Source: Neelides folsomi | Lineage: Eukaryota > Arthropoda > Collembola > Neelipleona > Neelidae | Reading direction: 5' to 3' | Length of the DNA stretch: 64,000 nt | Assembly (NCBI GenBank): GCA_034687125.1 | Contig: JAQGBZ010000151.1 | Coordinates: forward strand, 81,339 to 145,338 | Shown here: positions 20,064-47,000 of the stretch, one piece after another | Layout: each line of letters begins with the position of its first letter | How positions within the stretch are numbered: the stretch's first letter is position 1 | Program-made: the position numbers and the translations under genes | The notes under the pieces: generated by a model | Told to the model about the DNA's origin: nothing | Databases searched by the model: none | The model's input: only the letters and a program-made list of their open reading frames with translations

Positions 20064-23000
20064 GTAAGATCATTTTACTTTTATACATTACCAACCTGTT
20101 GCTCATTTCCATTTCTTGAGCAAAGACAATACCACAATGCAATTTGATATTCATTACGCCCAAGTTCAAGTTTTTTCATTATAAACTAACTAATTCTAAT
20201 AAATAATAGGAATCAAGAAACTCCGATTTATATCACTTTTAATTTTTTAACGTCTATTTAGTAGCATATTAAATCTCACGTTAATTCATGCTTTGATCCG
20301 AGCTTGGATGCATATTTTGATTGGTCTCAAATTAAAATGACTCGGAGGCTGAATCAAAATTCCATCGGGTTATTAAATCCGCTTCATTGAGTTGAAAAGG
20401 CAAAAAGTGTTAAATAGCGATAATGTTTTATGAGATTAACGTGACTTAAAGAGGAATTTTAAATTATGATCTTCACCGTGAAAAGTATTGGAATTTTGTT
20501 TATAATAATACGCTCAATATTATACGCTTTCATCATTATTTCATCCTTTTATTGTTATTGGGTATAAAGGTGATTTACAAGGTGTCAGAAGAGTAGCGAT
20601 TAAATTTCCATTATAACAAAACCGGATTTAATTCTCTTTCAATCATCTCAATTTCTCAATATAGTATTTCTTTCTCATGACTCTACTCAAGAAATTTTTC
20701 CAATTTATTAATTTCAATAAAAAAACATTAAAAATTTTATATAGGACTATTTTTTACAATTTAACCGAATGAATTAATGAATCAACTTAAAATTTTAAAA
20801 TCAAATTACAGTTTATTGTTTAATGAGGCTTAATGTTTTATCTTAAAAGTTGAGGGTAATTTAATTGGAAATTCTAAGGTTATGTTTGTTTCTCAGGATT
20901 AGGAAAAGATTGGTCACTGACGTGTTGACAAGTGGTTTCCTCTGAACTTATTTAACTTTCTGGGTAGTGCAGTGGAAGAAAAAGAATGGTCTCGATGAGA
21001 GAAACTGGAAGAAAAAGGCTCATTAAATCATGGAACTTGTCCATGACCGATCTTGTAGATTCGATGTCATTTCGCTCCAACCTCTCGCATAATAATTAGC
21101 TTCTGCGTTAATCCCCTTTTCGTCAGACCGAAACATTATATGCAGCTGAGTGAACAACACTTCTCAATTAGAATTTGACTCCTCTCAGGAATTCTCTTAA
21201 TCAAGATGATGAACTAATTTAATTACTCAGCGTTAAAACTCAAACTCATTTTTATTTAGAAACTTGTACACTTCGATATACTTCACTACAATTTATCTAC
21301 CTGTATAAGAAACTGATGTAAAACTTTTATCGAAGTTGAACATTTGACATGTTTAAATTCATTGGTGTGTAATGACTACTAATTAGTCAAGTTAATTTCC
21401 GATATTCAAACATGTGTGTTATAACTAATTTAAATGAACATTTTCTTTCTTTGGCTTGAAATCAGGATTTATTTTATTCTTACTGAATGTGAGTTTGATT
21501 GAAATATTGTTGGATTACAGTTGGATAACCTTAAGGCTTTAGGTACTTCAAAGTTTTAATGCGATTAATTAAGAAAAGTTAGTTTGAGGTAGTAATTATA
21601 TCAAGGATGTTCAAAGCGGCACTTTTTCAACAAACGACAAAAATCATTTCCAAGTTTAAGATACAATTGTAAGTCATGAAAGACATCGATAAAAGAACAA
21701 TAGGGTGAAATTTTTATCGTTATAGAATGTCCACACGCTAGAAAATGACAGTTCCTCCTTTTCAGAAACAAAGCAAATGGTTTTCTAAGAATTCTCCTGT
21801 TTTTTGTTTAATATTATGAAAGAGTTAAAATATCGTAGGACAATTTCCATCTTTAAAGGTATGATATATAACTTATTATACTTTAGGTAGGTAGTAATAG
21901 CTAGACATATAACTTGTACATATAATGACTTATAATGACTTATATGACAGAGGCGATACAAAACATGCATGTAGATCACAAAGAATAAATGAGGGCTAAA
22001 TTCGAGATATACCTTAAATTATTTCCAGAGAGTATTTATCAAATGCATGTTGGTTCATATTTCCAGTAAGATATCGGATTATAAGAGTTAGATGAATTTT
22101 ATTTTACTAGTCGTAAGGTCTTAACATTTGCTTATTGTTTGGATAAATAATTTCACATTTTTAGGGTTTATAATTTATAATCCCAAGTCTCTCCGTGTGT
22201 GAATGAAATGGGTGAAATAAGATCTCAAACTACTCTTAGGTAGTATGTACAGATAGTATGGAAGTATTGTATTATTTACTATACCATGGGACGAAATTCA
22301 TCTTGGATTTCATCCCCAACGTCCTCAAGTGACTCAGAAAACTGAGGAATGACACGGAAGAACATTTATAAGGGAGTTGTGTGGTTTTTATAAGAAAAGA
22401 GATAATGATGTGTTACTTAAAAGGCTCCTTCTCTCTTGTCCAAAACTCGACTCACCCAGATCCCAAATCCGATTAGCCGGGGAAGTGAATTTAAGGGCCC
22501 TGGTTGAAACTCACAGGGCCGTCGGTTATTTCGTATTGATCAATCCACCTTGTCTTCTCCTCCCTTCATTCAAACACTCGCTCACCCATAAATTGAGAGA
22601 TACTGTGTCTTTATATAGGGGATTTTAATTGAGATATTTAATCTCCAAAGGCATGAGACACTTTCGAGTCTCAAAGTGTCTTTATAGCCAACATGGGCGG
22701 AACCACGAGACAAAGATGGATTTCAAAAGGAAAGATCTCTCGACATTCAGAGTTCAAACTTATTTTCTCATTAAAAGGACAACCACTCGTCTCGCTTAGA
22801 ACCTCCCAAGTATTCTTGCCTATTAAGGAGTAAACTTGAGCTCTATTATTAAATATGACAAAACAATTACATTACTGAATATAATGATTGAGAGTCTGCA
22901 AATATCTGTAGTAAATCATATGATATAATATTTATTTCAAATAAAAAGCCTTCCTTCTCAAAAGGAATTAACTGAATATTAAAAATACAATTTGATCCCA

Positions 23001-26000
23001 TGTTGCTAAATGGCTTTCTGCATTAGTGGCATAATTTTGAATAAAAGGCATATTTGATACAACCGGATAATCTGTTGTTTCAATTATTCAAATTTTTTAA
23101 TACGAAAGAATGTAATGTAGGTACTACATACATTTGTTAGTTTAGAATTGCATTTATTTAGTATAAAAAATTGAGGAAAGTAAGATATCATACACAGGTA
23201 ATTATGAATTGATTGATTTACATGATTGATACAAAATTGGTTTAATAAACATCGTTAGTTTCTTCGTAGTCGTCTCTAGCTGAACACGAACATGCACAAA
23301 CATTTTGAGATGGAAAAGAAAGAGTTTCACATTGACCACCAATGTAGAGAAAAACATTTGGATTGGGGTTCATTTGCACGCAAAATCGGAAACACGGAGA
23401 TTCAGTGTCGTAAATACAGCTATCACGGAGTTTCTATCAAAAAGAATAAATTTGTTAATTAATAATTTATGAGCTAAATCTTATTAACAATGAAATTTTA
23501 AAATTAAGGATAAATGAATAAAATTTACATCACGGCAGTCGCAAACGCAATTTCCAGAATTTACATCACAAAAAGTAGCAGAGTAGGAAAATGCTTCTTG
23601 TTCATTGCAAGCTTCTTTGCAAATCGGATCACTTCTACTCGTACATTTACGAAGATCTCTTTCACCTTCTGCCACACGCCCACTCTGAAATCAGCAAATT
23701 CTTAATTCTTTCCCATTTTCCTCATTAATTTCACTCATTAAATAGGAACAAGGGACGAAACTCACCCACAAGAATATTAATCCCCAAATTAACCACAGTG
23801 ACTTCATGATCTGAAAAAATTGAAAAGTGATGAAAAAAGTTTTATAAAGTGGAGGAAGCACAAGTTTAAACTAGAAGAATTAATCAATGTCATGTGGCCG
23901 AGGAATTTAACATAATATTATTCCTCCATGTTATTATAACTCTCTGGCTCCATTGGTTAGATAGGTCTAAAGGTCTAAACTCGATCTCTTTAACTTTTAT
24001 CTGTAAGAAATGAAAATTTTGTACATGTCTGTGAGTAGTTTAAATAAGATATAAATTTTTGAATGTATCTCTATTTGTCCCATATACAGAATCTATCTCC
24101 ATTTACCTACTCTACTTTGACCATTAACAAAAGATATATATTATGTAGAGGAAAAGATATACTGTAGGCAAATACAAATAAAATGTATGCACTCTACTAT
24201 ACATGTAATATTGATACCGAAGTGTTTTCTTTAAACGAGGTATAAAATAAGTAGTAAAAACAGAGTTTATAAAGATTTAATCTTACCAAATGGATTAGAA
24301 AATGCACATACTCTTCTAAACTCCTTAGCCCTATTTAAATATATCAAAATCTAAAAAAGTTTACGAGTAATTTCAAATATACTTAATTGTGATTTTTTAC
24401 AATTTACGTTAGTATAATTAAGTAGTACAATGAAACCGGATAAAAGTCTTAAATAAATTAAAGCTCAGAATAAGATATTAAATAAGTACATAATTTATAA
24501 ACTCTAGTAGCCATATTATAAATATATCTTACACTTACATAATATGTACACAACATACATGTATGTGCCATACGTATATAAACGAGTAGGTATTAGATTT
24601 CCTTAGTGAACATACCCTGGAAAGATAAAGATTCGCACGGATATTGATGGAAAAAAATAATTTCCCACATTAATGAACCTGGGACTGGCGAAAAGTCCTC
24701 TATACATAGAGGCCTTATGAACACAATTGTCAACATTTGAGATTAACATAAGTACACGCGAGGGAACGACATGTCTCATTAGTTTCAAGTCACTCAAGTT
24801 TAAAAGATTCCTTTTACCATTTTAGTGCTTTCATTTCCGCTCATTTACGATTTTATACTTTCCTAAGTTTCCTACTTTAATTTTCCTTTTCCCTTACAAG
24901 TCACACCTTTCAGCACCTTCAAACAATTCCATGAATTTTACATTTTCATGGTATGAAATACTCGCCATACTTTTATACAGCTTTGAAATATGTAAAATAG
25001 TTGCTGGTCTGGTCTTCCCACTCTGTTAATTTTTGTCATTCGAGTTTAATTAATTATTTATTTCATTGTGATCTTATTGCATAAGCAAACGGAAAAATAA
25101 ATATACGAAAAATAATAGTGTTATACGATTTATTGCATAATTAAATATACTATAATACCTAAATGCTACAATAAATAAGATTGTTAAATATTATTATTTT
25201 ATGCTGTAATACAATAATATTTTGCAAATATTGCATGCATCTATCAGGTATTAACTATGTATGCAATTACATAAGTATGTAACATTATAGTAAATTATTG
25301 TTAGTAAAATTGTATTGTATGTAGAACTAAATACATAATACCTATACCTAGTCAGCATAGTGGAATTGTAGAAAGAGAGACAAAGTTGTTGGACCATCAA
25401 GTTCTACACCATCTATGTCAGGGAAAAGGTTTGTTTTTCATTTGTTGTTGGTCGTTTTTTGCTACAATTCTGCCTCCTGAAGATTCCAAGCGACACCTTC
25501 GCTTGAGCCAAAGGGTTTAAACCACCTGAGTACCTGAAGAAGTCAGGAGAGTGTTCCTTCCACCTTTGCTACCTGTCTCATCAATTTCTCATCATTTCTC
25601 TCATGGATCTTTCTACCTCTCTTGTCACAGTCTCTCTTTTGATTTTTCACTAGGTATATTACTATTCACCTTCTTACTTTTAACTCTTTTAGTTATGCTC
25701 TTAGGTATAACTGAATAAATTTCAAGTAGGTATGTTAATTTATCGCCTCTCTTTTTATTGACAAACCAATATCTTAGATTCAACATACATACGTCAACCG
25801 GAGGAAATCAAAGAAATTGTTTAAACAAGTACATTAAAATTATCTCGAACTAAGATATGCAGAATTTGGACCAAGTAAAATTAATTTTGAGATTAACATT
25901 AAAAAATAACGATTCACTCGCAAAGCTCCACACGTTGGTTCTTTTGGCAAATATTGATTTTTTAATAGTTTCATACATAATTATATTGTGCTTAAAGTCC

Positions 26001-29000
26001 AAACAACCCTAAAACAGTAATAATGACATATAAGTAAATAGTACAGAGAGAATATCCCCATACTAATATGTATTGGTATACATCAACTTACAATTGGAGT
26101 ATAATTATATCTACTCGGCATGTAATATACAACTTACTACAATTGAGACAAGATACATAAAATAGATTTTATTGATTGACACTGGAATAATAAAATAACG
26201 TGTATGTAAAGTTAAAACAATATAAAGCAAATTGTTCTTTCTGATTTGATATTCAATGAGCCCATGTAATTCCCAAATCAATCAAGCAACTTAAAATGAA
26301 CGGAATAAGCAAATAAGAATTATTTAATCAAGATTAGCAAAGTGGATCCTGTAAGAAAAGAAGCAAGGTGGGATTGACAATTCTTGTCAAAGATTGGAAA
26401 GGAGGAATATCGAAAAGTTCAAGTTTAAAGCTTAAGTTAAAAGCTCGCTCGTAAACTGAAGTTAGGACAAATGGATCGAGGCGTTGATGTATGAAGATGG
26501 CAATCAAAATGGCAAAGTCGTTGGAGGAGTCCGAACGATCCCAATCACCAATCGCCCTCCCATTCAACTAATTCTTCCATAATTTAAATCCCCTTAAATA
26601 AAAGAGAGCAAATGTCCACAAAGGGAATAAAGAACAATGCAATTACCCCGAGTTCGCCTCTTCAAAATATTGACAGTGTAAAAGATGTCTTGAGATGTGG
26701 CCATAGGATAAGGAAAGTCTTAACCATATAAAAGTTTATATAAACTCTAAACCAACAGCCTCTTCCCAGTCTCAGGTGTTCAAGTCAATTATTGTTCTTA
26801 AATGAAGGGAGAAAAAAACGTTGGTCCCTCCAAGCCCGAAGGGAACTATTTAAAATAATAATAAGAAACAGGGATGGTATGTATTAATAAGCTCTTCTCC
26901 CTCTCCAACCTAATGGGCACAGCCATTGAAGTACATTTTCTCTCACTCACCTTTTAATGCTATCTTATTTCCAAAGAGCTCATCATGTGGCTAATACTCC
27001 TCCTAATCAGACCCTCAATGAGCTCAACTGATCACTGGGGAATATTATGCAGCATCTCCCGAAGTATAAAGGCGAATGGCTTATCTGCCAGCTTTACACT
27101 ACTGTAATTAATGGACTTTTGTGGAGGAAAATCTGGCAGGATAATCCGAATGAATTGATATTAACCAGGAGAAAGCAATTCAAAGAGATACATACAATTT
27201 TATATACCACCAGAGGCCACAGCATTATTTTCATAAAATCCTACTAATATCTTACTTGCTTCCACTTTCAATTACTTAGCATTATACAATTAATAATTAT
27301 AATTAAATGCAATTACTTAAATTAAGCATAAAACTAACTAGTTAAGGTAAGATATAACATACATACATACTAGAGTACATTGTGGTAACTATTTATATTG
27401 GTATTACGAAAGTAAATATAGTACAAATGTTAAGGTATACTACATAGGTAGGTATACACATTTCAGAATTTAATTACAAGTATGTACATGTACCATATGC
27501 ACACTTGTTGAAAATGAAAATATTTATATTGTTGAATTTAGAAGCAACAAGTGGAAAAAGTCCAGAAGATTCGGAGGAGCGAGTCGAATGAGAAACAAAG
27601 GGAATTAAAGAGAGATTCCTCTGATTGCAAAGCCCTCGTTCTCTCCGCCTCTTCGTCGAGTGAATAATAAGAGTGTGTCTCATTTAAAGTCTCAACGAGC
27701 GAGCTAGTCCGTCAGCGTCTCATCTCTCTCTGATACACAGAGTTTGTATACAGAGTCGGATTATAGATGTAGAAACTGTAGATATATTTTGTCAGTGGTT
27801 GTGTAAGATGGGAAAGAGAACAGATTCGAAATACCCTTCGTACCTTCAACAGACAGATTCATCCCTCTCAGTCTGTTGGACGAAAAAAAGTTTAAAACTG
27901 AGAGAGAGAGAGAGGATTCCGGTTCTGGGAATTGGAATTCATCTACGAATTCTTCCCCTCCATGCTTCTTTTAGCCACACAGCGCCCTTTTCCATTTATA
28001 AATTCATATCATTTCAGAATCATCCCAATAACTATCAAAACTCTCCCGACCACATATGGGCTCTTAATACGCAATGAGCCGTTGAGGCTGATGAAGGATG
28101 GAATAGGAGAGAGGTTAAAGACGGGCAGAGGGTTGAAATTCATTTTGATTAGGGTTCATCAATTGATGGGCGATCAAGTGGGATGAAAAGGAGGGTTTGA
28201 GTGGGAAAAAATGTAAGTAGGTAATGAGAAGAGATGGGGGCGGTTGTTATTAAGAGAGGAAGAAATATGTGGAATGTCGAGTCCCCCACTCCCTCAGCGC
28301 TCTTTCACATCATCAATCCAGGCAGCCCACCTCACACACTCATCCGATTAATCAGTGGCAACCGTCTAACCCTCCTTTGTTTCTCTCCCTCCCTTCGCCT
28401 TTATGTATTTTACTCATCACATCAACGTCCCTCACCAACTGAGGATGCTTCTGAGACTTCAACATTTGAGTCTGTTCACAACATTCACATTATTTCAGCT
28501 TTTCTTCCAATATTAATGTTTGACCGTTATTATGTACTTTATTTACATACACTTTAGAAAAAATAGACATTTGGCTCAATTAGTATTTATTATACGAGTA
28601 CAAGTATATCGTATATTACATTAAATGGAAATTTTAATATTAAAAATAATTATTGTATTAAATTAAAAAAATAGAAATGGGAAAATAGAATTTTGTTCAA
28701 TTCAATAATTGACAATTTGAATTTTTGTTATTCACTTTTAAATAATAGGAATATCCGAGATTTGAATCTTGAATTTTCCAACTCCTTCCCTTTATCTTAG
28801 CCTGGAAAGGACTGAAAAGAGCTTAAGTTGATAAAATCACCAGAGTCCTTGAGTCTCTCTTCACCAATCATCCCTCCTGTCAGCAAGTTGGAGAAGTAAC
28901 GATCCAATTTACCCTGAAATAAACTGCTCTCGATTCCATTATCTTTTTATTTTCTCGTAGATCCACTTCATCAGCTCAATTACACTTCCCTTCAGGAAAA

Positions 29001-32000
29001 TGTAATTAATCCTTTAATTGTTGCACTTGATTGGGCCAAGTTTTCATTCATTGATTCAACACCTGATAAGCTTCAGTTCTCCCAATAACCTGATCAAAAA
29101 GTTAAATGAATAATATTACTCAATGAATTAATTACATTACATGAATACTAATTCGAAGGCGCATTATAGGCGTCTAAATCGCTAAATTGACTTTACTACT
29201 TGTTTTCTTTGGCAGTTGGGCGCATTAAATTGTAACGAATTGATTTCAGTTGAATTTAACACTATTTATCTATCTCACACTTTTGTGGACCAGAACCATT
29301 AAGGAAATCTAATTGATTTATGCCTTAAATGAACCAATTAATTAATTTTTTATAACTTTCAATATAAAAAGTTTAAAAATACATGAAATTCTTTACCGAT
29401 CGACATTGTGAATAAAAAACACCATATTATAACAAATCTACCTACACCCTAGATTTGCATAAATATTCTGTGTGATGTTATTATATTAGATAGAAGATAT
29501 TGAAATCGAGTAGCAAATTCTTTTCTTTAAAATATAACACCTCGGATCCTTATATGAAGATTGAGGATTATTATAATATGCATAAGTAGCTTTACCATAA
29601 TGTATGGTATATATCTGTATGTATATTTGAGTTTGCAATTCCATTCCCTCAACATGTCAAAAAAATAAAATGACTAAAGGTTCAAGATTAGTAATGAGAA
29701 AAATATTTGTTAAAATTATTAAACTATGACAGGTTCTCAAATTTAACTATTTCTTGGAAATAGTGAGAAGGTTAACAATGGTTCTTTGACTCATCCATGT
29801 ACCATAGAGAAAAGTGATGTAAAATTGTGATCGAAGTAGGATCAACTGGATTCTTGACTCCAGTTGGATCTCACACCTGTCTTGTGCATTATTCAGACTC
29901 CAGCGGTCTGGGAGTCTCTATGATCCCGAGGAGGGCTGTTTTTGTTTTGGACTTGGGATTTGCCCTCAGGACTCCCAGGTCCTCTCAGCATTATTTAGAG
30001 ATCTTTGGTAGTGTCGGGAGGAGAGTGCCTACTTGAGCGTACGTATTCGAGCCTGGTAGTTAAAGAACAGGTAGGTTCTCCCACCGAGACCAAAGGTAGA
30101 TTTCTAATGGTAAATCCAGCCCTCGGCCCTCTTTCCTACCTCCACATTGTGAGTCCGCAGAGCCCAAGACCAAGGCCTGAGCAGGTACCGGAGTTAGTTT
30201 GGGTCAGGTGCGCGGTCCCTCCACACCTCACGCTCTTCCTCCATTTCCATTAGAATAATAAGAAACTGTTCCTTCGCTGTCTCGAATTGAAACTGTCTTA
30301 AGCCCAAATTCCCCTCTCCCTCTCACAATAATAGTGTTCATCAACGATCGGAAATTATTCGTTCTCTTGTGAAGTCAATTAATTACTTATTATGACTCGA
30401 GACGTTCATTTGTTCCTGTGTCTTGTTAAACTCTAATTTAACTCCCATTCAATTCCCATTGAACGTGTGATGTACTGAACGTCAGTTCAGGTAGGATTGG
30501 ATTCAGAACTCGGGGTATAAGAAGAAGTAGAATTGGGAGCAAATCTACTCCACTTTTATTACACTGTTGATGTAACCATCTTTTTATGATATGAAGTGGA
30601 AGTGTGACTCATTTGGTGAACTTTGAGTGTGGAAACCGGCGGAAGGACTCCTAACGTACAACGAATGAAATGGCCACAATCGGCTACTCAAAAGTGTTCA
30701 TTCTGGACAAGTATTTTACCGAGTGGCAGAAATTCTGGGAAACGGAGAAAAAAATCCAAGGCATGCATATGCAAGGTGAGGATATCTTTTGGATCTCCTC
30801 AGCTCCTGAACCAATTGATATTTATGACCAAGTCTCGCTTCTTTACTAGAATGAGGTTTTGGCCATTTGTCAAGCTCATTTCACCCATCAAATAGTTCAG
30901 CCTCTGCTAATTACTTTTAACCTCTACTTCAACCTTTTACTTGTCCCATTGATCGGCCTCATATTCTCCTCATATTCTCCCCATAGAATAATATGAGGAG
31001 CATGAGTTTATTTAGAATATGATTAGGAAAATAGGTTGGAAATAAAGAAAAGGGTGAGCAGGAGGAGGTTGCAAGATGCGCTATGTTGAGCCTCATCGCT
31101 CCAAGGGACAATCCGACTTGGAAACACTGACTTAATCTCCAACTCGCTCCTTGTGCTCTCTTTTCCTTTAATCATCACACAAACAGTTTCATACAAATAA
31201 TATTATGGAAATATTATTTGACTTCACTTGTTACATTATTATTCTCTATCTTTAACAAAAATAAATGTCACATGTATTAAAGTATTTGACTTATTGTCAG
31301 ACTCATTAGCTTCTCAAATGGCTCAAATGTTATGAATTAAATCGGATTTTTGGATTTCATCCTTCCTAATCCTTACGTGGTAATGATTATAAAGATGACA
31401 TTGCAAAAAAACACACCATGGGAGAATCAGTCATAAAGAATAATGAACATTTTGAGGTAAAGACGTTGGTTGAAAATAAATGTTTTTAGTTCCTTGATTC
31501 CATGTTTGAATTCTCTACTTATCTTTCTCTAAAGAGGAATTTTTTGTTTAAGATGGTTTAGCAAACGAAAAGAACTTCTTATAAGTCTCATGTTCTATTG
31601 GATATGTAATGTATTTACAATGCGACTTACTCCTTTGTGCAAGCAGAATTACACGAGTGTTAATAAAGCTCAGATTTTACGGGTTGAGCTGGGAAGGCTC
31701 GTTTGAAAGAAAACCTCTCATTATGAGAATGTTGGAAGGCGAATTGGGAAAGCCGGCTTTTTTATAATTTCGTCTTTTATTTGGACATTAGTTGGGAATT
31801 GTAGAGTTAGCGTCTGTTCGGTGTTTTTGTCCACTGAGGGAGATCCTGAGGGTGACTGGGAAAGGTGAGTGGCTCGGGTGAGGATCGTTGGAAGTCAACT
31901 TGACTTCTCAGCGGGAAGGGACATAAAATGAGAATAATTTTTCGCCCCTCCAACTCCGAATCCCATTAAGAGCTCTTGGAATCGCCTTCCTGTTTTATTT

Positions 32001-35000
32001 GAAGGATTTAATTAAATTTCATGGTCGTAAAGCGGACCTTACACCAAAAGGACACACAGCCCGCTTTTGAATATTTTGAATAAATAACTATATTTGGTTA
32101 CTCTCCTCATAAATTTTTGTTTATGAGTAATTTATGCATAATGGCTCTGAACGGATCTTCACACCTAATGCGCCCGTTTGGTTTTTTGAATGTCTGGTCA
32201 ATTCGCATTATTTCTCAGAGTGGATTTAAATGGTCATTTGGCATTTTGGCAAATATTCGAATACCTCTTTCCTATTGATAAATGCTCATAATATTCCAAA
32301 GGATCCTTGGGTTGATTAATGAAGCTGATGCCCCCGCAGAATCTACAAATGCATAAGATCATATTCGCAGAATATTAACGTCGCTTTATGATAAGTTTGA
32401 TAAGTATTAAATTTTCTTATTAAACGTGATGTGGTACACAAAACGAGAATTGAAATGTGGCACTTAAATCTAATGTTACTATTGTACTTCCACATTAACG
32501 ACATTAGTAAACTGTCACATGGTGAAGAAAGAGGCACTTAAAATACCTGATAGTTAAAAAGGTCAATCATTTTTATTTTTCACTTTTAATTCCGGATAAG
32601 ATCTTTGGAGACAACTTAATGCATGGACTATCTTTCTAATCCTATTGTGCTACGTTTCAACTTTCAACTCGTCTGTGACAACGAGGACTATGAGTCTTTG
32701 ACAAAATGAAAAGCTTAAATGGAAAATGTCTTTAGCTGGCTTTAACTTTAACTGTCCCTAAGAGAAAGGTAGTTAAACCCTTCAGTTAAAACCAATGTTC
32801 GTAAAACCTTCCATGTAAATACAAAATTGAATAAATGTCGCATGTCACAAGTCTTTCAACTTCAACATCCACCAATGCGTAAATTGATTTATTAGTTGTT
32901 ATTCAGTTGTTCAGAATCCCGCTATTGGTTAAATGCACAGAGGAGGAGCAGCTTTTACTTATCAAGAGAAAAAGGTTTGAAATACAAATGTACAATAGCG
33001 GACCTTTTCATGTCAAATTTCTAATAGTTTTAAGTGGGGAGGATGATCAATCTTCAACTCCATTACTTCTCAGGTATACCTAAGTAATGTGTAGTATGAT
33101 GTTTTAGTAGACAAGAAAGATATAAATATGTTTAACCCTTATATTGAAATACATTGTATTTATTTGAATACATAGAACAAGTGTCGTTTAAATGTGAAAT
33201 GAGGATCGGTCCACTTTGACAAAAACTTTCATCGGATCACTTTGTTTTGGGTTTGTAAATTGAGGTTAAAGGATATGATACGGAATATCCGATTGACTCC
33301 AATGGTCAAATTCTAAAGTTGCCATAATCTTAAAAAGGTCTCCTCATTTTATTCCTTTTAACTTGTTTGGAAAGAGAAAGCATTGAGTGGGTTTTGAAGT
33401 GCAAACCAAATCCATCCCTCTTTTCAAATGATAAAAATAACACCCAAATGGAACAACGGGATAAATGCACTTCAATAAATATAACGAATACCGTCAAACT
33501 ACTTGGTTTACCTTAACCTAAATCTCACTGTATAAATATTTACTTATATCGATTAAAATTTATGTATGAGAAATGTATATGGTATTCGTAATGATCATAC
33601 ATATTATTGTATGTGAAATCATCTTACTTCATAAAGAAAATAATCTTAAATTATAATAAGTTTTCCAGTTTCAAAATTATTAAGATTTTACCATTTTCCA
33701 CTCGTCATTCCAAGCCTTTTATTAAATATGTAATAAATGGGTAATGTGATCTGATGATATGAAAGAGGAAAAGGACGAGTATCATTTTATCTCGAGGAAT
33801 TCCGGTTGGTGAATCAATTTGCAAAGTTGTGTTTAATAACCATATCTTGCCGCTTTTATTAATTTTGCACAGTATGCAACTCACTTCCTCGCGGAAGAGC
33901 TCTAATAAAAACACTTTGTCGGTATTTTGAACTAACTTCTGTCGAAACAACGTCTTTTTACTCTTTAAAACAAAAGGAAATGTTGTAGGAAACATTCGAA
34001 ATTCTTTTAAAGAATTCTTCCAAACAGCTCTCAAACATGATTTTAACATCATGGTTTTAGTACAAACGGTTCCCATTTGGCGTTCCTTTCAATTTACATG
34101 AAGGATTAAAAGAATGTGGAAGTCTGAAACAAAGTCGGAGGAGATTTAGATGTTGAGATATGCAGTAGCAATGAGATGGGGAAGTGAGCATCGTCATTTA
34201 GACTCGTTATATTGCTTCAGATTACTCTTGAAAAGATTACGAAGAGACTCATCTGCGCATTTTGAGCTACTTTAACTCTCCTACCAGAGAGGTAATCAAC
34301 CCAGAAGCCTTCAACTTATGAAACAATATTTCTTACGTGGAGGGCAAGAACAAGACGCATATCCGAATTGCATTAGGTGGATTATTACAACCCCCTGCAA
34401 TACACACATATGCTGAAGGTGTTTGAGGTACTTTGGTCGCTCTTAACAAACTTTATTCTTTAAATTGATTCAATCTCTCAGAAGCTCAGCCTGGCCATGT
34501 TGATCCGCTTAATGCGAATATCCATCTACCCATGCATGTGTTTTGAAAGAATTAATTGCTGTACAATAAAGTTACCTGGCTCTTTTACACACCTTATCAC
34601 TGAACAATTTAATTCAACTGGGTGCATTGTCTGTTTATTGACACAATTTGATTTAATTTTAACTAATAAATCGTTCAGGATCTTACAAACCTTTTCATTG
34701 CCAGGTACTTTTGAGTTGATGTAAGCTGAACTTGAAATTCAAATGATACCTACACTATTTAGCATTGTAAATAATACAAGACACTATAATTTTCGTTTTA
34801 TACAAAACAATAGGAATGTTTAAATGAATGAATAATTCATAGTTTAAATTTGACAAGAATTGTGCATCAACAGAATTCTTTTATTTTTGAGTATATAAAA
34901 ATGTAATGTCATAACGAATGCTCTTACCTAATTTTATTATAAATATGTAAACATACCTGAGTAAATATAATGTAAGTATATGGTACAATACTAATTATTT

Positions 35001-38000
35001 TTTGTTATATTCTATTAAATAGTGATTTTCCCTTATTTGATTCCAATTTTGGTCAAATTGACCGGGAGGTTGAGGAGAAAAGGAAAGAATGGAAGGAGGA
35101 ACGAAAGGTCAAGCAATGGGTCAATTAAGATGAAAAGGCTCAAGGGGCCCGCCTTGTTAAAATTCGTATCTCGTCGTTTACTTACCTCTAGATCACACAT
35201 TCCTCCGGCATCCTCCCCTTCTGCCATTTAATTTACCAGGGAGCAAAAAGCGGAGAAATAATGATTTTATTTATGGAAATCGTGAGCCTTTCAAATGGCG
35301 GAGGAAGTTGGACACGGGTTTTCAATCCACAACATCCCTTAATTTTTTACTCCTCATACAAACACAACATCATTTCATATCCTTTGATCAAGATGACTCT
35401 TCTTGATATTCGGAGAATAAACCATACTGATACTTTCCTAGGTATATCATTTTCTTATATTCCTACTTACCATTATCTCCCTTGCATCCCCTTTTTTGCA
35501 CTCTTCCTCTCATGAAGTGGGAGCATTGTAGAGTTGTAAAGTTATGGTTTCATGGATAAATTGAACTTCTCCTATCTTTCCCTTTGGTCATGGGACCATC
35601 TCCGGTTTTCTGTATATGTTTTATATGTTGGGGACGAAGGTTTGGATTTTTGGATCGGAGTGTTATTGGTAAAGGCGAAGAAGTTCACCCGAATCACGCC
35701 CATTGGCCCTAGACGTCGCCAGATTGGAACCTCATTTGTAGTCTCTTTTGTTGTGCGAATGGAGCGGAGGGAGGAAGGATGATGATGAAGGGGCACTTCA
35801 CCTTCACATTGATTGTCTCTTGGTCCTTCAAGGAACGACCCTTCGGCTCCCTCCCTGCCCTTTCAAACCTCGGTAATATTTCCACGAGTGTGCGGACAGG
35901 CGGGGAGATTTTATGAATGAGAAATAAATGTTTGGGAGTCGAAACTCCTTTTTCACCTCCCTCATCTCCAAGACCCTCTCGGCTCCTGATCAGACTTCTC
36001 ACTCCATTGTGAACAAGGCAGTTTGGGCTCTTCATCCGCCGACCATCATTATCATCGGGACATGGTTCATGGGCCTTCCTAGGAAATACATAGGGAACCA
36101 TAATCCACACTCAAAAGAGGGAAAATAAGTGTACGGGGACACAAACAAGAAATGCGGGGCGCGTATTGTGATCTTATACCTAATGGCTTTTTATTTTGTA
36201 TATAACCTTTATAAAACCCTCTTTACTGCATGTGCTTAAAGGAGGATGTTGAACTTATTTATTAAAGTAATTCTGTTCCCTTATAGGGACCATAGACGGA
36301 TATGTTTTGTAACATGCTCCTAATACAAACTTGAAACTTGTACTAATTTTTAAATTTTTACACAATGTGCTCAATGGGCTTCATTCACTGCGGTATTTCA
36401 TTCATTCTGGTGACGATAATTAGAAAAAATGTTCAAATTTCTTGGGGTTTGAGTGGAGGGAGAAAAGTCTCTCCCGTGAGTCAGTTAACACTTTTTAGCA
36501 AGATAATTGTTAATTGAATTTAAAGAGGATAGTGCAACTAGAACACCGGAGTGTTAAATATGGCCAGATGAACATCCCACCCAACTCTCTAATTCCATTT
36601 GCACAATAACTAATCCGCTAAATTAATATTGTTATTCTTGTGGCGATAATAGGTATATCAAACGATTGACCACGATCTTGTAATGATCATAAACACATGC
36701 AAATTTCCATGTTGTTGAATCTTTTCATTAAAATTGAAGAGTTTTCCATGTTGGCAAAACTTATAATTACAGATAAGTGTCACACCTAATTATACTCGTA
36801 CAGTTCATTTAAATCTGTTTAGTACATTTACAATATTGCATTTACTGCCAGTAGAGTAATTATTATAAATTGATACATTTTTCCTTTATTTGAATTTTTT
36901 GAAATATATTTATTAATAGTAAATACAGACACAATAACATTTCATAAAATATACATCGATATTCTTATATGTACAAATAATATACTAATATTACATGTAC
37001 AGATTTGATTACATTAGAACAATATTTTTTGTTCACAATTTTATACATTTGCTCGTTTTGAAACTATTTTATAGAAAAAATATGAAAACATTTCGTTTTT
37101 CAAATGTTGTTAAAATTGTGAATAGAAGTGAAATGGAGTAGTAAAGCAATTTGCCCAATGGAACAACCTGAAGTTAATCATAAATGAGGGGTAGAAGGAT
37201 AACTCAACGTCCCTTCCTGCATACCTGCATGTTCCTCCACACAACGGCCATCCCGAGGGTAGAGTTTTTCCTCCCTTCCTCCCGGGGCACTTTGCTTTCG
37301 GAATAAATAAATGAAATGGTGTTTGAGAAGGGGCTCTTTTGACTCTCGAGGAGAACTGGACGACTGGAACCATTTTTACTTGTCCACGCACGGCTGCTGC
37401 TCGTCCCCATTAAAGTGAAGGAGACACTCGAACAGGTTGAAAACCTGGAAGTATTTTGGAAGGAAGAGAATGCGAGGAGTGCAGGGAGAGGTGAAACAGA
37501 CTCAGGGATTATTTCTCCCTAAGTGGAACATGAAGATTTAACTAGGGAACCAACGCAGAGTGATAAAGGTGAAATGAAGTGGGTTCGGCCACGGACGTGT
37601 TCTTCTGCATAGTAATACCTTGGTAATACCTCACTGGTCGAGGAAGCCACGATAAATACGTATCTCGTTACCCACAAAGCTGATTCACTTTTCTGAAGGG
37701 CATTTAAGTCCCTATGCCAAGACCCTTTGTCCTCAACAACCAAAGATATGATATATCTCCCGGCTTCAAGGACCGTTCAAACTCTTGTCGACCAGGAGAG
37801 AAAAAATGGCCACTTGTTGAAGAAGACTCAACGGCACTCCTCTCATTTCCAAATATCTCCCTCGTCCGCCTCCTGAATGCTCCAACTCTCAGCGATGAAA
37901 TTGAGGATCGAGTCGAAATATTTAATAACTATATCGATATCTTCAATGAGGAAGAATCCGGTTAAGAGGGAGGAACAACCGACCTAATAAGTAATCTTAC

Positions 38001-41000
38001 AGACGAGACTATTAACCATACGCTACTACAAAACACTTAACTAGTTGGATCCATATAACTGCATGACTTACATATTGTAAATTGTACTCAAATACAGGAC
38101 TTATACTGTCTTACCGATATATAAATATATCAGTATAGTTAGTATTCATCAGCCGCGAGTTTTGCCATTTTCCAATATGTAGAGTATTGGATTTAATACC
38201 AATAAGTTCAATACCTTGAGTTCCTCCGCGTGAGGAAGGAGGAGGCAACGAATTTAATTAATTTTGGGCTTCCTCCGCATATTAAGGAGGTGGAGGCAGA
38301 AATGAAATGCCAGGGTCAATTACATGGATTGCATGGAGACTTCTCATGTCAGTGATGGAAGTGGTGATTTTGGCTCGGAGGAACCTTTCGAACCAAACAC
38401 TCAATTGGGTTGGGCTCTTGCGAGTATTCTAATATCAGAGCCGATTCCTAATAACACCTTTAAGATGAGATCTCACGATAAGGGAAAAGATTTCATTCCG
38501 TGTCTCTCCAATCTCAAGACAATCCAAACTCATACACACGAAGTTGAAGAAGGGCTGAATATATTTTTACACGTATTGCCTTTTATCTAATGGCTCCTCC
38601 GACCACAAGAAGAAGTGAGGTGGAAAGCAATCTGTCTGGCCCAAGATTGACATCCATATAAATACATGGGAAGTTAAATAGTTATATACTTTCTGGAGGA
38701 GTCTGGTGGGCTAAGGGGTTTCAATTTATCTCCATGTGCATTTACATCCCTCACTTTATGTTCTTAGGACCATAAATGCAGAGATATATTTAGGGCGGTT
38801 ATGTGAGTGTGAGTAAATAATATATTGTCTTGTGCGTATATTAACTACATAGAGGTGAGGATTTTTAAGGGCTCTTCTCCTCCACTCATTGTCTTCTTGT
38901 TTGGGAGTTATGAGGAGATGGAGGGAGGGCCGGCCAAAAAATCATTATCATCTCTGGCCGACTTGGTATCCTATAATCATCATCTGATTGCAGCCCGCCT
39001 CGTCCTCACTGGGGGGTGCAGGGAAAAGAGTGAAGGGCCGAAAACAAGAGAAAGCCCCAAGGTCTCACCAACCCCGCACAAAAAGACCGAAAGAAAGGAG
39101 GAAGGACAGTAATTTTTTGTGGTCCCTTTTCCCACATCCAACCCTCGTCGACAGACACCGCAGTTAGGCGCAGTTCCATTGAGATACACCAGGATGTGTA
39201 TAAAGAATCATCACAACTTGGAACGGCCATATAAAACCCTAAGGATTACATATCTAATTCTACATATCTCTTCTCGGCGGATCTCGATGAGTAGGAAAGG
39301 TGTGGCGGGGAGAAAAAATCATTTCTGGATATATCCTCCTTGGCCCCTCGACCATTGTTTCTCCCCGACCACCCATCAAGATTTGGGAAACAACCCATGT
39401 GATCTTAAATAGGAAAATAAAATGAATTGCCGCAACCATCAAAGCCTGTCCTTCCCCTTTGTCCCACAATGACATTCAACAGGTGTTTGCAAAAATACTT
39501 CTAATACCCACAATAAAGTACGAGTACTCGTACAGCAATATACTTCATATTGTACACGCGGGTTAAATATGACAAAGGTCTACTCGGATACTCAATTTCA
39601 ACTTTTATGTTCAATTTAACAAATGGATGGTCATTCACTTCAAGTTTGACAATTTCTTATCTTGGCTGTATTTGGGGTACATTTGAAACTCCATCGTCTT
39701 ATACGAAGCATTTAAATGTAAATATTACCTACCTATTTAACCAAAGATTCTGTATATGTAAGTAGTATTGGGCATTATGTACTCGGCTCATATATTTTGT
39801 ATTTATAAATATAATAAGGTCTATGGAGTCATATAAGAAGTAATAAGGTTTAATGCAAAGCGATAAAAATTTTTGCAATTTTAATTAATCTGCGAGATCC
39901 TTGTTGAATTAAAGTTTTCTTTGTCAATTAGAAAAGACCGCCTCAGCAGCATCTTCATTGGGCCCCATAAATTATTATGACTGAGAGACGCCTCACATAA
40001 ATATAAATTTTTCCTTTCGAGAGGACAAAAGACGTTCTTTATTTCCTTGAGAAGAATGGGCAGGATCAACATGTGAAGTTATATGGAAAGTGAGGTCCCG
40101 TTAAAAAAGAACCTGGGAGGCGAAATGGCCCTTTCCGCGCCGAGACGCGAATGTGGGATGACAATGGCTATATTTATAGAAACGGCTCATTATTTTCATT
40201 CGGCCAAATTGAGTGGAGAGAAATAAGTCAATTATCCTCGCCAGTTGGGCTTTTGGAAATGGAATTAAAGGAGATTCCATTTTACACCTGTTGGTCCACC
40301 TGTCCACTTTCAATACACAAATCCATGTATTCTATCACAATTTAACCCATCCATTCTCATTTTCGAATGGCCATAAAATGGAAAGTTGTAAATTAATGCA
40401 TAAATTGCCCATTCCTTAATCTTTCGCTTAATTAGGACGAAATAATTGGATTTTGGTAACTTAACGACTAAATTAAACATATTCCTTTTATCTTTATTGA
40501 ACATTTCTTTATCTTTATTTTATTTCAAGATGTTTGCAATTACACGAGCTATAGATATTTATGTATATTTTTGTGAATCTGTATAATCTGCAGATGCAAG
40601 TTGACAATTAATTTCTTTGGGTATCAAAATTCATTTGAAATGTGACACTTAAAGGCGGATGGTTAGCAAAGTTGGTATGAGAATTATTCATGTGTAGCGT
40701 TTAGGAAAATGGACACATTGCGTGCTGGGAAGCTGTTCTCAGCTTGAAACTGTCTTGATTTATTGACTGATGGGAGTTGGAGGTTGAGTAGGCGGCTTGG
40801 AATACTCTCCACCAAACCCCACCACAAACACGTCTTCCCCATCCTTTATAGGTTAAGAAGCAGTTGGAAATGCAAATAGGAAACTGGACAAGTCTCCCAT
40901 CACATCTCGTAACTTTCCATGTCAGATAAATTTGGTTCTTCAATGAATCTGCCAGGCGGGGAATGCATAAGCATAATAAAGAAGTTCCAGAGTGACGTTC

Positions 41001-44000
41001 TAATAATCCATGCTAATCTTTCGCCTCCTCATTCTTTAGCACTTAAATGCCGAGAGAATGTTTTCCCTCAGGACTCGCTTAATTATTAAACCATATTAAC
41101 CTTCATAAATTATTTCTTGACCCTAGAGTGTGAACCTGTTCAAAAATCAGTCAAATGAAATACCACTAAAGCTAATCAACTCGACCACAAATCCACTCAA
41201 TAGAGTTTTTAACCATCTAAATAAATATAATTTATTCCCTTGTATTTTGTAGGAGTAGGTACATATTTTGTCTACGTATACGTATTTAGCTATTAGAATT
41301 GAACATATTAATTATGTATGAAAGTTACAATAATAATGAAAGGGGATGTTCTTTGATGTCGAGATACTGAAGAACTAAAGATGATATAAAGGATAAGATT
41401 TTAAAAATTATCAATCCGAATGAAATTGAAGTCAAAGCTGGAAAGCTGATTAGTCAAAATTCAAATTTTTTGTGGTAGGAAGGGCCAGCAGAATGAGAAG
41501 AATAAAAATTGGTTCATTTGAAAAATCTTCTCTTGAAAGGATGGGACTTGGAGGTGTGTTTAAAGATTAAAATTCTCCGGTATGTACAAATAATGCACAA
41601 TTGTTCCATGTTCTGAATATTGAAAGGCATAATGATAGGCAAGCAAAGCCGAGGTCTCAGTGCACACAAGAGATTCAGGTTTCTCAATTGAGACTTTCAA
41701 TAATATACATAAATTCAGCTTTTAACCTAGCTTTTTTATGCAAATGACCTCAGCCGAGTTGGTGTGTTGGGCGAGGAAGTGAAGTGGATGTCCAACTCAT
41801 TGTCAGCCATTCAGATTCCTGATTTGAACCTTGCTAATAAAACTCCACTCACTCAGACGTGACTTAAGAGAAAAGAGACCTCAATTAATCCTAGAACCTC
41901 AACGTGGAGAAATTCCACTATTTCTCACTCAAATCTGGAAATGGGGAGAGATGTTGAGTGAATTTGAGTAATTTAGTAGTCAATTGATTCCATTTGATTC
42001 CCAGATTATTATTCAAAATCCAGTGGGTGTGTAAATACAAAGGTTGTAACTTTTGTGAAAAGTCTGCTTTTTTCCGACCGTGTCAAGATTTACTATTTAT
42101 ACGAGAAGACTCGTCTGAATGCTAAAGACCCTTTCTCCTCAACTTATGCTCAAATGCTCTCAAGTTCTTAATGTTAGATAGCCTAAATACAACCTCTTGT
42201 TTATAGTAATATTATGCATAGGTAATGAACACATTTAATTTTCAAAACTCACCTAAAACTATGAAAAGGCAAAGGAATAAGAAAGTGAGTGGAAAGGGGC
42301 CAGTTTCTCTTTAAAAAAGGGGCCAGTTTCTCTTTAAAGGCCCTTATTGACCAAGGCCCTTTTCTTTGGCTTACTAAATAAGCATGTTAAATGTATAGAG
42401 TTTGGAGCAGGGAGTTTTCAGGTCGGGTAATAATAATGAAATAAATTTCTCTCCTTAAGAAGGTCTTCAGAGGAGTGAAAATAAAATGAGTAGTCAACGA
42501 CGGTCAAAGCCCAATAGTCCCTGATTTATTTAATGATTATTTTTATGATCATCTTCACTTGCATTTGTCTGGTTCGGGCCCGGACTATGTAGTTTGATTT
42601 ACTCAACTTGTAGGGCCAATGAGGTCCCTTTTGTGTTTTTAACTCTTCCTAATCGGCATATGGCTATGGTTCATCTCATTCATTTATTTACCATTCGTTG
42701 AAGGGTTCTAAAATGCAATTAGGAGGGTTGTGAAATGGGCAGTTAGCGATTCCTTTGAGCTCCTATGCCAAGGAATGCCTTAGAGCTTCTGACTCCTCAC
42801 AATTCCTGTTTCCTATCTGATCAATGCTCTTTTTTATTCATTCGGCCCTCGTCGAGTTGCTGTTGAGGGCTCGTTATGTGACCCAACAAACTCCGTGATT
42901 TATTCCTCGTTCCTCCTTTACGAGGGAGATGAGGCGCGGAGGGAAATCATCGGTTAAACAAACATTAGCTCGAGAAAACTCCAAATCACACTCAAAGCCC
43001 ATTAGAAAGAAGATCTATAAAATTGGGGGAATTGAAATGGATTACTTTAATAGTTTCGCATTCTTTGGCATTTTACTACATTTCTGTAGGTACAAAAGTT
43101 TCACCTTCATCCGCTTGGTTCAAGATCAATTATCACAAGTGGTCTGAGCTAAGAAATAAAAATTTCACTAGGAGCATTTAAGTGTTTTTCATATATTTTT
43201 TAAAGTTTGTTTAGGAATTGTAGGATCAACAAGTGGTTACACGACAGGAGAAATCCTTAAACTAGAAAAGAATTGGGGAGGGTAGAATAAAAAAGAGGTC
43301 GTAAATAATCAAAATCTCTTCATCTGAAGTGAGAAAAACGAAAAGGGATGATGCGACATTTTGCGATTCAAATCAAATTAAGTGTGAATAAAAACATTTT
43401 TCATGCCAAACAGCTCTATGAATTTTAATAAACTCAGAATTTTACTCACAATAAGTAAGGAATTAGGATGAGTAAATATATAGAAAAAGGAACAGATCTT
43501 TCTCGGTGAAGGCAAAATACACCTTTTTAGGATAGTAAAGTGCTTAGAACAATGAGTAATTGCATGTTCTGACGCTAGCAATTTGGGGTAAAAAGCCTGC
43601 AGACAAAAGTTGAAAACCCTCGTTGAACCCTTTAATTAACTCATTGTCAGCGATTTCCCGGTCTTTAATTTAGAGGTCAGATTTTGAGTTCAAAAATGGA
43701 TTTTACTGAAATCTAAAAGCTAAAAAGATCTCTGAAAATCTATAAAAAACCTTCTTTTACATTTATATAAGATTCCAGATTTACAAAATATATACCATAA
43801 ACCTAATTATTAGAAGAAGTAATGTATACCTATAATTCGTTATCATACTCATAATTAAGGTACAAGGTACAAAAAATATAAGTTATACTTTTAGTACTCT
43901 ACTTACTAACAATAAGTATTAATATTATTTTAAACTTTAATAATGGAAGAAAATCTCTTCAGTAATTTTTCAGCTCTTCTTTGTTGATTTCTGTTTCAAA

Positions 44001-47000
44001 AATGTTCATGTTTTAACGAAAAGGACCATTTAAGTTGAAATCCCCATTAGAACTAATCTGTTTTATTCACCTTTAAATTGAGTGGATGATTTTCCATTTA
44101 AAAGAGAATGGCGCTGCTGGAGTTTTCAAGGAAGTTAATTCCTTACGCGAATCACACTTTCTCACATGGTTAAGTTTCTTTTAATTCTTTTGTTTTAGCA
44201 AATGGCCATGTAAGGAGTCATTAAGAAAATCAATCATTGCGTTGATTCGTTAAATTGTATGAACGTTTTATACAATTTAAAACAATTAGGTCCTTGATAG
44301 CTTAAACATAGAACCTCATGTAGGTATTTAACTAACTTTTAAGTTATAAGTAAATGCAATTGTATAGTGCATGTAAGTGTATGTATACAACAGTTGAAAC
44401 ACTGTTAAGTATAGTGTGTTTAACAAATGGCCAAACTAAATACTAAGTTTATATTTGAATGAATACATTTAGCTTAGGTAGTTGGCTTTGTGATTTTGGT
44501 CTGAAATCAAGTCTCGTTAGTAAATAAGTAATTTGCCTATAATTGGACTGAATTGGTGAATTTCAAGCCTTTAACCAAATCCTTTAAGGTAAATATTTTT
44601 ATACCAAATAACATTTAAACATTCTTGTAGGATAAAAAGATGTAAAAGCTCAGGTTTAAAGTATTTAACAGACTTTTCCCTTCCTTGAATGGTGTTCTTT
44701 ATAAAGTATTTCCCCTTTAAATTTAATAGTTTCAAGTCAAAAGTCATTTCGCCATGTTCTCCAGATTTGTCATTCATTCAATGTCTTCAATTAACGTCAT
44801 GATCGCTATGGCAGATGGCAATCTGACTTTTAGAATTTGGTTTGGAACTTGACTCATTGAGGACAGGGATGATTTTCCAGCGACATTTGGATAACAAATC
44901 CTTTTTGGGACAATCAACTTTGATTTTCACATCATCATTAAAACCTTTAAAACAAGTAAGGAAAAAAATTGCCAAGAATCCTCAATGAAGATTTGGGGAT
45001 TCCCTCACTCGCAAAATCCCAACACTCTAAAGGTCATTGCATCAATAGAAGAAAATGATCGGCTTTTGAAAACCATTCTGTATTTATTTAAATTGAATAA
45101 TTAAATATTTCTTAAATTAACATGCTAAATGACTATCTGTCTATAATGTAAATATTACAGTGAATTGCGAACAATACTAGTCTGCCATCATGAATGAATA
45201 AATAGGGAGGCATTATTAATTGCAATCTGGCTGTGTGAAGCATAATGGATCAATATTCTTTATGATTCTTATGGGATTATACATCTGATGGATCTCTTGT
45301 CATCGCCTCTCTCATTCACTAAACAACCCTTGAGAATTTTAAAAACAAACAGATGTTGGAGATTCTTCTGTTTGACTTTGATTCCTTCCTTCTTTTATAC
45401 CTTACATTTGGAATTAGCACTAAAAAATAGAAACTGCAAACATGGTTATATAATATCTAGCTTCTCTTAAGAATCTCCCATTAAATATCCTTTCATATTT
45501 AACTACTAAATATACATACCTTATATGTACCATACATAACAGCTTATAACATGAATCTGACAATAAGTATCCTTATAGCTTTATATACATATTAAATATT
45601 TTACCATTTTCCATCACATAAGATAGATAGAAGTGGATAGAGACTTAGAGACGGATTTGTAATGGAGAATGTAAAGGAAGAGTGGAGCTGTTAAAGGCAC
45701 TCTGAAATAAGTTTTATCATTACATCGTTGTTGAAAAGGGCTTTTTAGTTGATCCGACCAACTTGAAGTTTCTTTGTTTGGGAGGAGCTGTAAAGATGAA
45801 AGCGCTTTCTGGACAAGGGACGAAAATAGGCTCCTTGGGCTAAAGTTCCCAACCTTGAAAATCCCTCTCTCAATTAACACATCCAAAAAGGATGAGGATT
45901 CAAAGGCCCGCACGCCTTCAATCTTCTCCGGAATGAGAAGCTCAGTTGACTATCACAAAGTTCATTAGAATGTCTGGATGAATTACCTGATATTTTTACA
46001 AACATTATATGTAATTTTTAAAAGATGCCTTTTATGCACTTGAATGCATCGAGGTTGGAATAGATTGCCTCGAAAAAACATCCTTTTATATTCTTGAACC
46101 TTTTTATATAGTAAACCTACTCTAGTATGAAGAAATAGCTATATATAAATTAATTAAGTAATTACTATGTATCAGCAATAATAAGAGGATAAGATATCAC
46201 AATATTGATATAATAACGATATTATAATAATTATCGTAATTTTAACAATATTATAAAATTCTACTTATATTTGTATTTATGATTATGAATAATTCTTATT
46301 GAAGTACATAATATGTATATTAGTTTCTAATTACGATAAAAATGTTTTTTAGTAAATGAAAAAGTACAACGTTACGTCTTTTGAATAATAAATTATTTAA
46401 TGAACTTTTATGAATTTCATCAAGAATATTTTCCTTCGTTGATATTCCTCGTTTCACTTAATTATGGAAGAATCTACAACATAAAAAGACAATAAAAGAA
46501 CAATGTTGAGATTATTTAACATTTAGATTATTTTAACTAGAATTCACAATGAGCTTAAAGCAGTATTAGCATATAAATCCAATAAGGACGAGGTAATTAA
46601 TGAATACTAAAGTTTTAAGGCTTCTTTTATTGGTTCTTTTCTCAAGGCTGGTTGGGAGACTTCAACGAAATGAATTTCTGCATTTGCATACAATTTCAAT
46701 ATAAGAGAAATTAAATTGATTCCCAATTTTTACTCTTAGACAAATTGTGGTGCTAAAAGTTGAAATCCAATTGCGTCAATTATCTATACGTCAAATAAAT
46801 TGTGGTTTACATTCAGGTTTAGATTCAAGTGGCATACATTGAATAGAGTATCATTAACATTTAGTAAATAAAATGATAACTTTTATGCATTGGTTAATAA
46901 ATCTTGGATTTAAATGGATTAGTTCTATTCACATTAAATCGAGTCTCTTATTGTTTCGTGGAAAGGTTGATGTGAAAGGTTTAAAAAATAGATTTGTTCA

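What the first reader, a model, noticed from the sequence alone, without database searches (positions are those of the whole stretch)
23242..24345. Nested antisense gene for a tandem double CS-alpha-beta peptide
A complete small secreted-protein gene (TATA box, 5' UTR exon, signal peptide exon, two domain exons, poly(A) signal) lies within the 29.5-kb first intron of the myosin gene on the opposite strand. Each of exons 2 and 3 encodes one domain with the CxxxC...C...CxC pattern, so the protein looks like an exon duplication of a defensin-like module. Arthropod defensins of this fold are usually single-domain, and I do not recognise this two-domain form.
Basis: partly seen in the sequence, partly recalled or inferred. 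Interest (0 to 1): 0.75.

Follow-up and report, generated by a model that had tools for sequence, protein, structure and literature searches.

The report
Springtail two-domain defensin-like protein gene
A soil springtail carries a family of at least seven predicted secreted proteins, each built from two cysteine-rich halves of which the second is defensin-like and which may be tied to each other by a disulfide bond; the gene in this window is one of them, a new variant of a known kind of protein.

Summary
It is not alone. The same genome holds six more genes with the same first three exons: signal peptide, CxxxC...CxCxC domain, defensin-type C...CxxxC...GGxC...CxC domain. One adds a CBM_14 chitin-binding domain. 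A domain-2 profile of the other six ranks window exon 3 first of 2107 ORFs (E 1.7e-4). The assembly's COX1 is springtail, perhaps near Megalothorax.

CS-alpha-beta is fairly supported by sequence for domain 2, for domain 1 only by cysteine pattern; structure prediction did not decide. Exon duplication is not shown. Multi-domain CS-alpha-beta proteins are known elsewhere (X-tox, nasonin-2/-6). New here: a springtail family with unequal domains, an odd cysteine number in each half and an even total in 7 of 7, suggesting an inter-domain disulfide. Function is inferred: extracellular defence or chitin-matrix protein, not a classical cationic peptide (window protein net charge -8). No transcript data were available.

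The parts
23766..23807 (-). coding exon 1: MKSLWLIWGLIFLW, hydrophobic core of the predicted signal peptide; phase-0 donor gtgagt
23529..23684 (-). coding exon 2: rest of signal peptide and domain 1, C-x7-C-x3-C-x12-C-x6-CxCxC (7 Cys); phase-0 donor gtaaat
   Evidence: Cys count; not recognised by the domain-1 profile of the other six genes
23242..23433 (-). coding exon 3: domain 2, C-x7-C-x3-C-x16-C-x10-CxCxC with IGGQC at the fourth Cys (7 Cys), acidic tail and stop
   Evidence: first of 2107 window ORFs with the leave-one-out domain-2 profile, E 1.7e-4; 18.4 bits, reached by 0 of 1000 shuffles
23153..23158 (-). AATAAA poly(A) signal
   Evidence: by eye
23840..23846 (-). proximal TATAAAA, alternative promoter
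   Evidence: by eye; not tested by expression
   Evidence: by eye; not tested
24287..24312 (-). possible 5' UTR exon (start approximate), donor gtaaga at 24286, acceptor ttttttcag ending at 23811
   Evidence: by eye; not tested
20064..49586 (+). 29.5-kb intron of the presumed host (myosin) gene enclosing the minus-strand gene
   Evidence: phase-compatible GT and AG read; no transcript data

Best explanation
The locus is an intact gene for a small secreted protein with two cysteine-rich domains, one of at least seven members of a family in this springtail genome that probably grew from defensin-type (CS-alpha-beta) domains. Each domain is predicted to hold its helix to its sheet with the CxxxC/CxC disulfides; the extra cysteine of CxCxC in domain 1 is predicted to pair with the matching extra cysteine of domain 2 (or, in genes A and C, with one 8 residues downstream), so that the halves form one rigid bivalent unit and are not cut into two peptides. 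Acting outside the cell, the unit most likely binds a surface (microbial wall or chitin-containing matrix) as part of barrier defence. Shown: gene structure as an open, spliceable model, family, cysteine parity, domain-2 similarity to defensins. Inferred: expression, secretion, fold of domain 1, inter-domain disulfide, binding and defence.
For: Gene and splice sites. Six paralogues whose first three exons have the same plan: A and B on C336, C on C54; G on C46, H on C185, I on C339. Domain-2 alignment: C1, C2, C3, GG, C4, C5, C6 invariant in 7 of 7; domain 1: CxxxC and CxCxC in 7 of 7. Leave-one-out domain-2 scores beat all 1000 shuffles for 6 of 7 sequences; gene A's is reached by 2 of 1000. 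Cys in exon 2 odd (7, 5, 5, 5, 5, 5, 5) and in the following exons odd (7, 7, 9, 15, 7, 7, 7) for W, A, B, C, G, H, I; totals after residue 20 even in 7 of 7. CBM_14 in gene C, E 8.3e-10. CxCxC is absent from 4 of 5 other defensin-like models of the genome (E1, E2, D, F).
Against: No transcript or protein evidence. G, H and I were selected by a pattern that demands CxCxC and a phase-0 donor, so for these three the domain-1 CxCxC and the phase after domain 1 are partly built in; only their CxxxC and whole domain 2 are independent. Splice sites were chosen by eye; the signal-exon junctions of C and H have alternatives and phase 0 was preferred. One short model that is not of this family (D2 on C256, uncertain) has CxCxC and eight Cys. 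The signal sequences of H and I hold one more Cys each, left out of the even totals. Window exon 2 is not found by the domain-1 profile of the other six. Structure models are poor (mean pLDDT 41.8 and 49.9), and the searched domain-2 model matched no defensin. Even cysteine totals are usual for secreted proteins.
Confidence: 0.55

Rival explanations
1. Cuticle or extracellular-matrix structural family: the double domain is a cross-linking knot in a chitin matrix and has no immune role.
For: Gene C carries CBM_14; H and I have long Tyr/Pro/Gln-rich stretches before domain 1 (after residue 20: H 10.7% Tyr and 12.6% Pro, I 7.7% Tyr and 8.2% Pro); six of seven have negative net charge.
Against: The window gene has no such stretch or chitin-binding domain; the PDB matches of the domain-2 profile are defensins and a venom peptide.
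Confidence: 0.3
2. Classical antimicrobial precursor: membrane-active defensin(s), perhaps cut into two.
For: Defensin-type domain 2 with GGxC; gene A is basic (+7).
Against: Window protein net charge -8, no dibasic site between the two domains (sequence), odd cysteine count per half. X-tox, a comparable multi-domain case, is reported not to be processed into defensins and to have lost their activity (PMC2728511, passages).
Confidence: 0.1
3. Unexpressed relic or wrong gene model.
For: No transcript evidence was available; none of the 2 candidates in the protein database scored E <= 10.
Against: Intact frame, splice sites and cysteines, and the exon-3 profile match to six paralogues with open models.
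Confidence: 0.05

Closest known systems
X-tox proteins of Lepidoptera (Spod-11-tox)
   Same: Secreted chains of several CS-alpha-beta motifs derived from defensins, lineage-restricted (PMC2728511, passages)
   Different: 3, 5-6, 6 or 11 motifs in the species named there; in Spod-11-tox 11 cationic motifs C-x4-C-x3-C-x7-G-x-C-x3-K/R-C-x-C. Here two unequal domains, extra CxCxC cysteine, mostly acidic chains, in a springtail
Nasonin-2 and nasonin-6 of Nasonia vitripennis
   Same: Repeated defensin-like domains attributed to exon duplication (PMC2853521, passages)
   Different: 4-5 repeats, phase-1 introns; here two domains, phase-0 introns
Bi-domain drosomycin-type peptides of nematodes (Gu, Gao and Zhu 2018)
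   Same: By title, two drosomycin-type (CS-alpha-beta) domains in one chain
   Different: Seen only as a title in the reference list of PMC10506718; cysteine plan not compared
Bi-domain plant defensin MtDef5
   Same: Two linked defensin domains in one protein (PMC5700942, start of abstract in the listing)
   Different: Highly cationic, two 50-aa domains with a 7-aa linker; a plant
Single-domain collembolan defensins (Sminthurus viridis)
   Same: C1-x5-6-C2-x3-C3-x9-10-C4-x7-C5-x-C6 core (PMC10051947, outline and passages)
   Different: One six-Cys domain; that survey of five springtail species reports three defensins, all in one species, and the passages I saw describe no two-domain form

Membership tests
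CS-alpha-beta / invertebrate defensin superfamily (domain 2) | C1..C2xxxC3..GxC4..C5xC6 framework | tested here: met
   Invariant in 7 of 7 paralogues
CS-alpha-beta / invertebrate defensin superfamily (domain 2) | profile similarity to known defensins | tested here: inconclusive
   Of 13 PDB matches at E <= 10, 12 are defensins by name and one a venom polypeptide, best E 0.055; the window protein has no Pfam match up to E 10
CS-alpha-beta / invertebrate defensin superfamily (domain 1) | C1-C4 pair besides CxxxC and CxC | tested here: inconclusive
   Present in the window gene; domain 1 of the other six genes has five Cys and lacks C1 and C4
CS-alpha-beta / invertebrate defensin superfamily (both domains) | helix plus two-strand cystine-stabilised fold | tested here: inconclusive
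   Models give strand-helix-strand-strand order for domain 1 and helix-strand-strand-strand for domain 2 at low confidence; no defensin among matches of the domain-2 model
Pfam Defensin_2 (PF01097) | score over the gathering cut-off | tested here: not met
   No match for the window protein; gene A exon 3 scores 17.0 bits against 20.4
X-tox | several six-Cys CS-alpha-beta motifs in a lepidopteran | tested here: not met
   Springtail COX1 in the assembly, two seven-Cys domains, net charge -8
Nasonin repeats | phase-1 introns | tested here: not met
   Phase 0 in 7 of 7 models, with phase 0 part of the search for three of them

The most novel reading that the evidence does not exclude
A springtail-specific protein module in which two unequal defensin-type domains are locked by an inter-domain disulfide, used as a rigid bivalent binder and recombined with chitin-binding and Tyr/Pro-rich segments; the window gene, with two full seven-Cys domains, is either closest to the ancestral form or a member that copied domain 2 over domain 1.
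Probability: 0.35. Interest if true: 0.65.

Novelty: new variant of a known kind. Interest (0 to 1): 0.5.

Why it matters
A homology survey of springtail antimicrobial peptides found few defensins (three, in one of five species, PMC10051947, passages). The genes described here are split over exons and score below the defensin cut-offs of Pfam where I tested them, so such surveys could miss them. If the inter-domain disulfide is real, the family shows how single defensins were turned into covalent two-headed proteins and then joined to a chitin-binding domain, apart from the multi-domain forms of moths and wasps.

Tried and rejected
Direct searches with the window protein found no relative: protein database (2 candidates, none at E <= 10), Pfam, PDB, own genome other than the gene itself. 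The family came to light through Pfam defensin profiles in the own genome (PF01097; PF00304; PF24552), then through two DNA patterns for CxCxC followed by a phase-0 donor.

The pattern hits are not enriched over the reversed-pattern control (24 against 40, and 28 against 24), so the pattern alone proves nothing. Of 52 hits, 4 were genes already known (W and A in the first list, B and C in the second). Of the other 48 I fetched 23, chosen by eye (9, 14): 3 are family members, all from the second list, and 20 are not; 25 were not examined. My note says 45 instead of 48; 48 is right. Seven is a lower bound.

Mite origin was my first guess and was dropped after COX1. A liprin-beta exon search gave 266 hits, the best ones unnamed, and did not place the animal. 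Structure prediction and fold search gave no usable fold; only the domain-2 model was searched. Rfam: no match over the gathering cut-offs. A paper search for a 75.1 Mb mite genome gave nothing. Two-domain, X-tox and springtail wording was searched; none of the rows listed there names a springtail two-domain form, but lists were capped and subscription papers are mostly not held.

Full report
Observation. On the minus strand the sequence holds ATG at 23807, coding exons 23807-23766, 23684-23529 and 23433-23242 (stop included), GT-AG introns in phase 0, and AATAAA at 23158-23153. The product is 129 aa: a hydrophobic leader, then C-x7-C-x3-C-x12-C-x6-CxCxC (exon 2) and C-x7-C-x3-C-x16-C-x10-CxCxC (exon 3). 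A seven-cysteine pattern, written after seeing the gene, is found twice in the window, both here, and never in 60 first-order Markov windows. A + strand intron 20064-49586 (29,523 bases, phase-compatible ends) encloses the gene; myosin-head matches follow at 53270-58072.

Organism. The assembly G000 has 75.1 Mb in 840 contigs. Its one COX1 match lies on contig C742. In one search (7999 candidates scored, 120 listed) the best hit is unnamed (93%), and the 36 hits that follow (P0122-P0157, 79-82% identity) bear springtail names or wider taxa (Metazoa, Hexapoda) before the first beetle; that these genera are springtails is partly recalled. A quick tree of 37 sequences (the query, 30 named springtails, the unnamed hit and 5 insects, picked from the 120 listed) puts the query and the unnamed hit beside Megalothorax with support 0.90. 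One gene on one contig: the placement inside Collembola is tentative, and that C742 comes from the same animal as the window was not tested.

Family. Direct searches found no relative. A weak Defensin_2 match (E 0.41) opened a gene (A) on C336 with the same three-exon plan; a second (B) begins 0.8 kb downstream of its end. PF00304 led to a third (C) on C54, and the second of two DNA patterns to three more (G, H, I) on C46, C185 and C339. Gene models: all seven have phase-0 introns after the signal exon and after the domain-1 exon. They were made by eye; phase 0 after domain 1 was a search criterion for G, H and I, and was preferred among possible signal-exon junctions in C and H. Gene C continues into two more exons with CBM_14 (E 8.3e-10). 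Gene B has a long acidic tail. H and I have Tyr/Pro/Gln-rich stretches before domain 1.

Does the window gene belong? A domain-2 profile made without it ranks exon 3 first of 2107 window ORFs, E 1.7e-4, next 0.36; shuffles of it reach its score in 0 of 1000. The same test holds for 6 of 7 genes; gene A's domain 2 is reached by 2 of 1000. The domain-1 profile made without the window gene does not find exon 2. Exon 2 scores weakly with the domain-2 profile instead (7.3 bits, E 0.62, rank 4). So exon 3 is a family member by sequence; exon 2 is one by position, phase and cysteines, and may be a domain-2-like copy.

Fold. The domain-2 profile (seven sequences, the window's included) matches 13 PDB sequences at E <= 10; 12 are named defensin, defensin-like, PDF1 or sapecin and one is a venom polypeptide; the best E is 0.055. 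That PDF1 and sapecin are defensins is recalled. The domain-1 profile matches none. AlphaFold on the single protein, and on domain 2 aligned with domain 1, gave mean pLDDT 41.8 and 49.9, with strand-helix-strand-strand and helix-strand-strand-strand order; searches with the domain-2 model found no defensin. The full-length model was not searched.

Mechanism. Exon 2 has an odd number of cysteines in 7 of 7 genes and the following exons together an odd number in 7 of 7 (in gene C that sum of 15 includes the CBM_14 exons); totals after residue 20 are even in 7 of 7. Five of seven domain 2s end in CxCxC; A and C end in CxC but carry a cysteine 8 residues downstream. The simplest reading is one bond between the halves. 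In six genes domain 1 lacks the C1-C4 pair and keeps only the helix-to-strand pairs plus the extra cysteine; the window gene has C1 and C4. Of five other defensin-like models, four lack CxCxC; the fifth, an uncertain short model on C256, has it with eight Cys. Net charge is negative in 6 of 7, against a cationic membrane-active peptide. CBM_14 in gene C and the Tyr/Pro-rich stretches of H and I point to a chitin-containing surface, either cuticle or fungal wall. I favour barrier defence, with a purely structural matrix role as the main rival; both are inference.

Known relatives. Multi-domain CS-alpha-beta proteins are known in moths (X-tox, PMC2728511, passages), a wasp (nasonin-2 and -6, PMC2853521, passages), plants (MtDef5, PMC5700942, start of abstract in a listing) and, by title in a reference list, nematodes (PMC10506718). 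The springtail survey PMC10051947 (outline and passages) reports three defensins, in Sminthurus viridis only, each with one six-Cys motif. The present family differs in domain pairing, phase-0 introns, the extra cysteine and its fusions, hence 'new variant of a known kind'. The mended counts in this version did not change my odds.

Noticed in passing
L020:9569-9893 and L021:523-890 (G000 C365): Two neighbouring single-domain six-Cys defensin-like genes with a phase-1 intron; the second passes the Pfam Gamma-thionin cut-off (27.3 against 25.1 bits).
   Followed up: partly
L025, minus strand near 8601 and 7389 (G000 C324): Two similar cysteine-rich exons (CDRGCPNNDEC...) in tandem, another cysteine-rich pair, not modelled.
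   Followed up: no
L016:6760-7632 (gene B): After the double domain comes a long tail with an acidic DHNLDGVNDFEEDQDMNGIPDHKEDE stretch that looks calcium-binding by eye, a hydrophobic stretch and a Tyr/Pro-rich end; no Pfam match at E <= 1.
   Followed up: partly
L023:9055-9433 (G000 C256): A short eight-Cys reading with CxCxC (CDTMCSPSLKCYCSC) next to a single-domain defensin-like gene; its gene model is uncertain.
   Followed up: partly
G000 as a whole: A 75-Mb springtail assembly is far smaller than the 273.69 and 392.8 Mb springtail genomes in two abstracts listed; COX1 suggests a lineage near Megalothorax. Completeness of the assembly is not known.
   Followed up: partly
   Followed up: no
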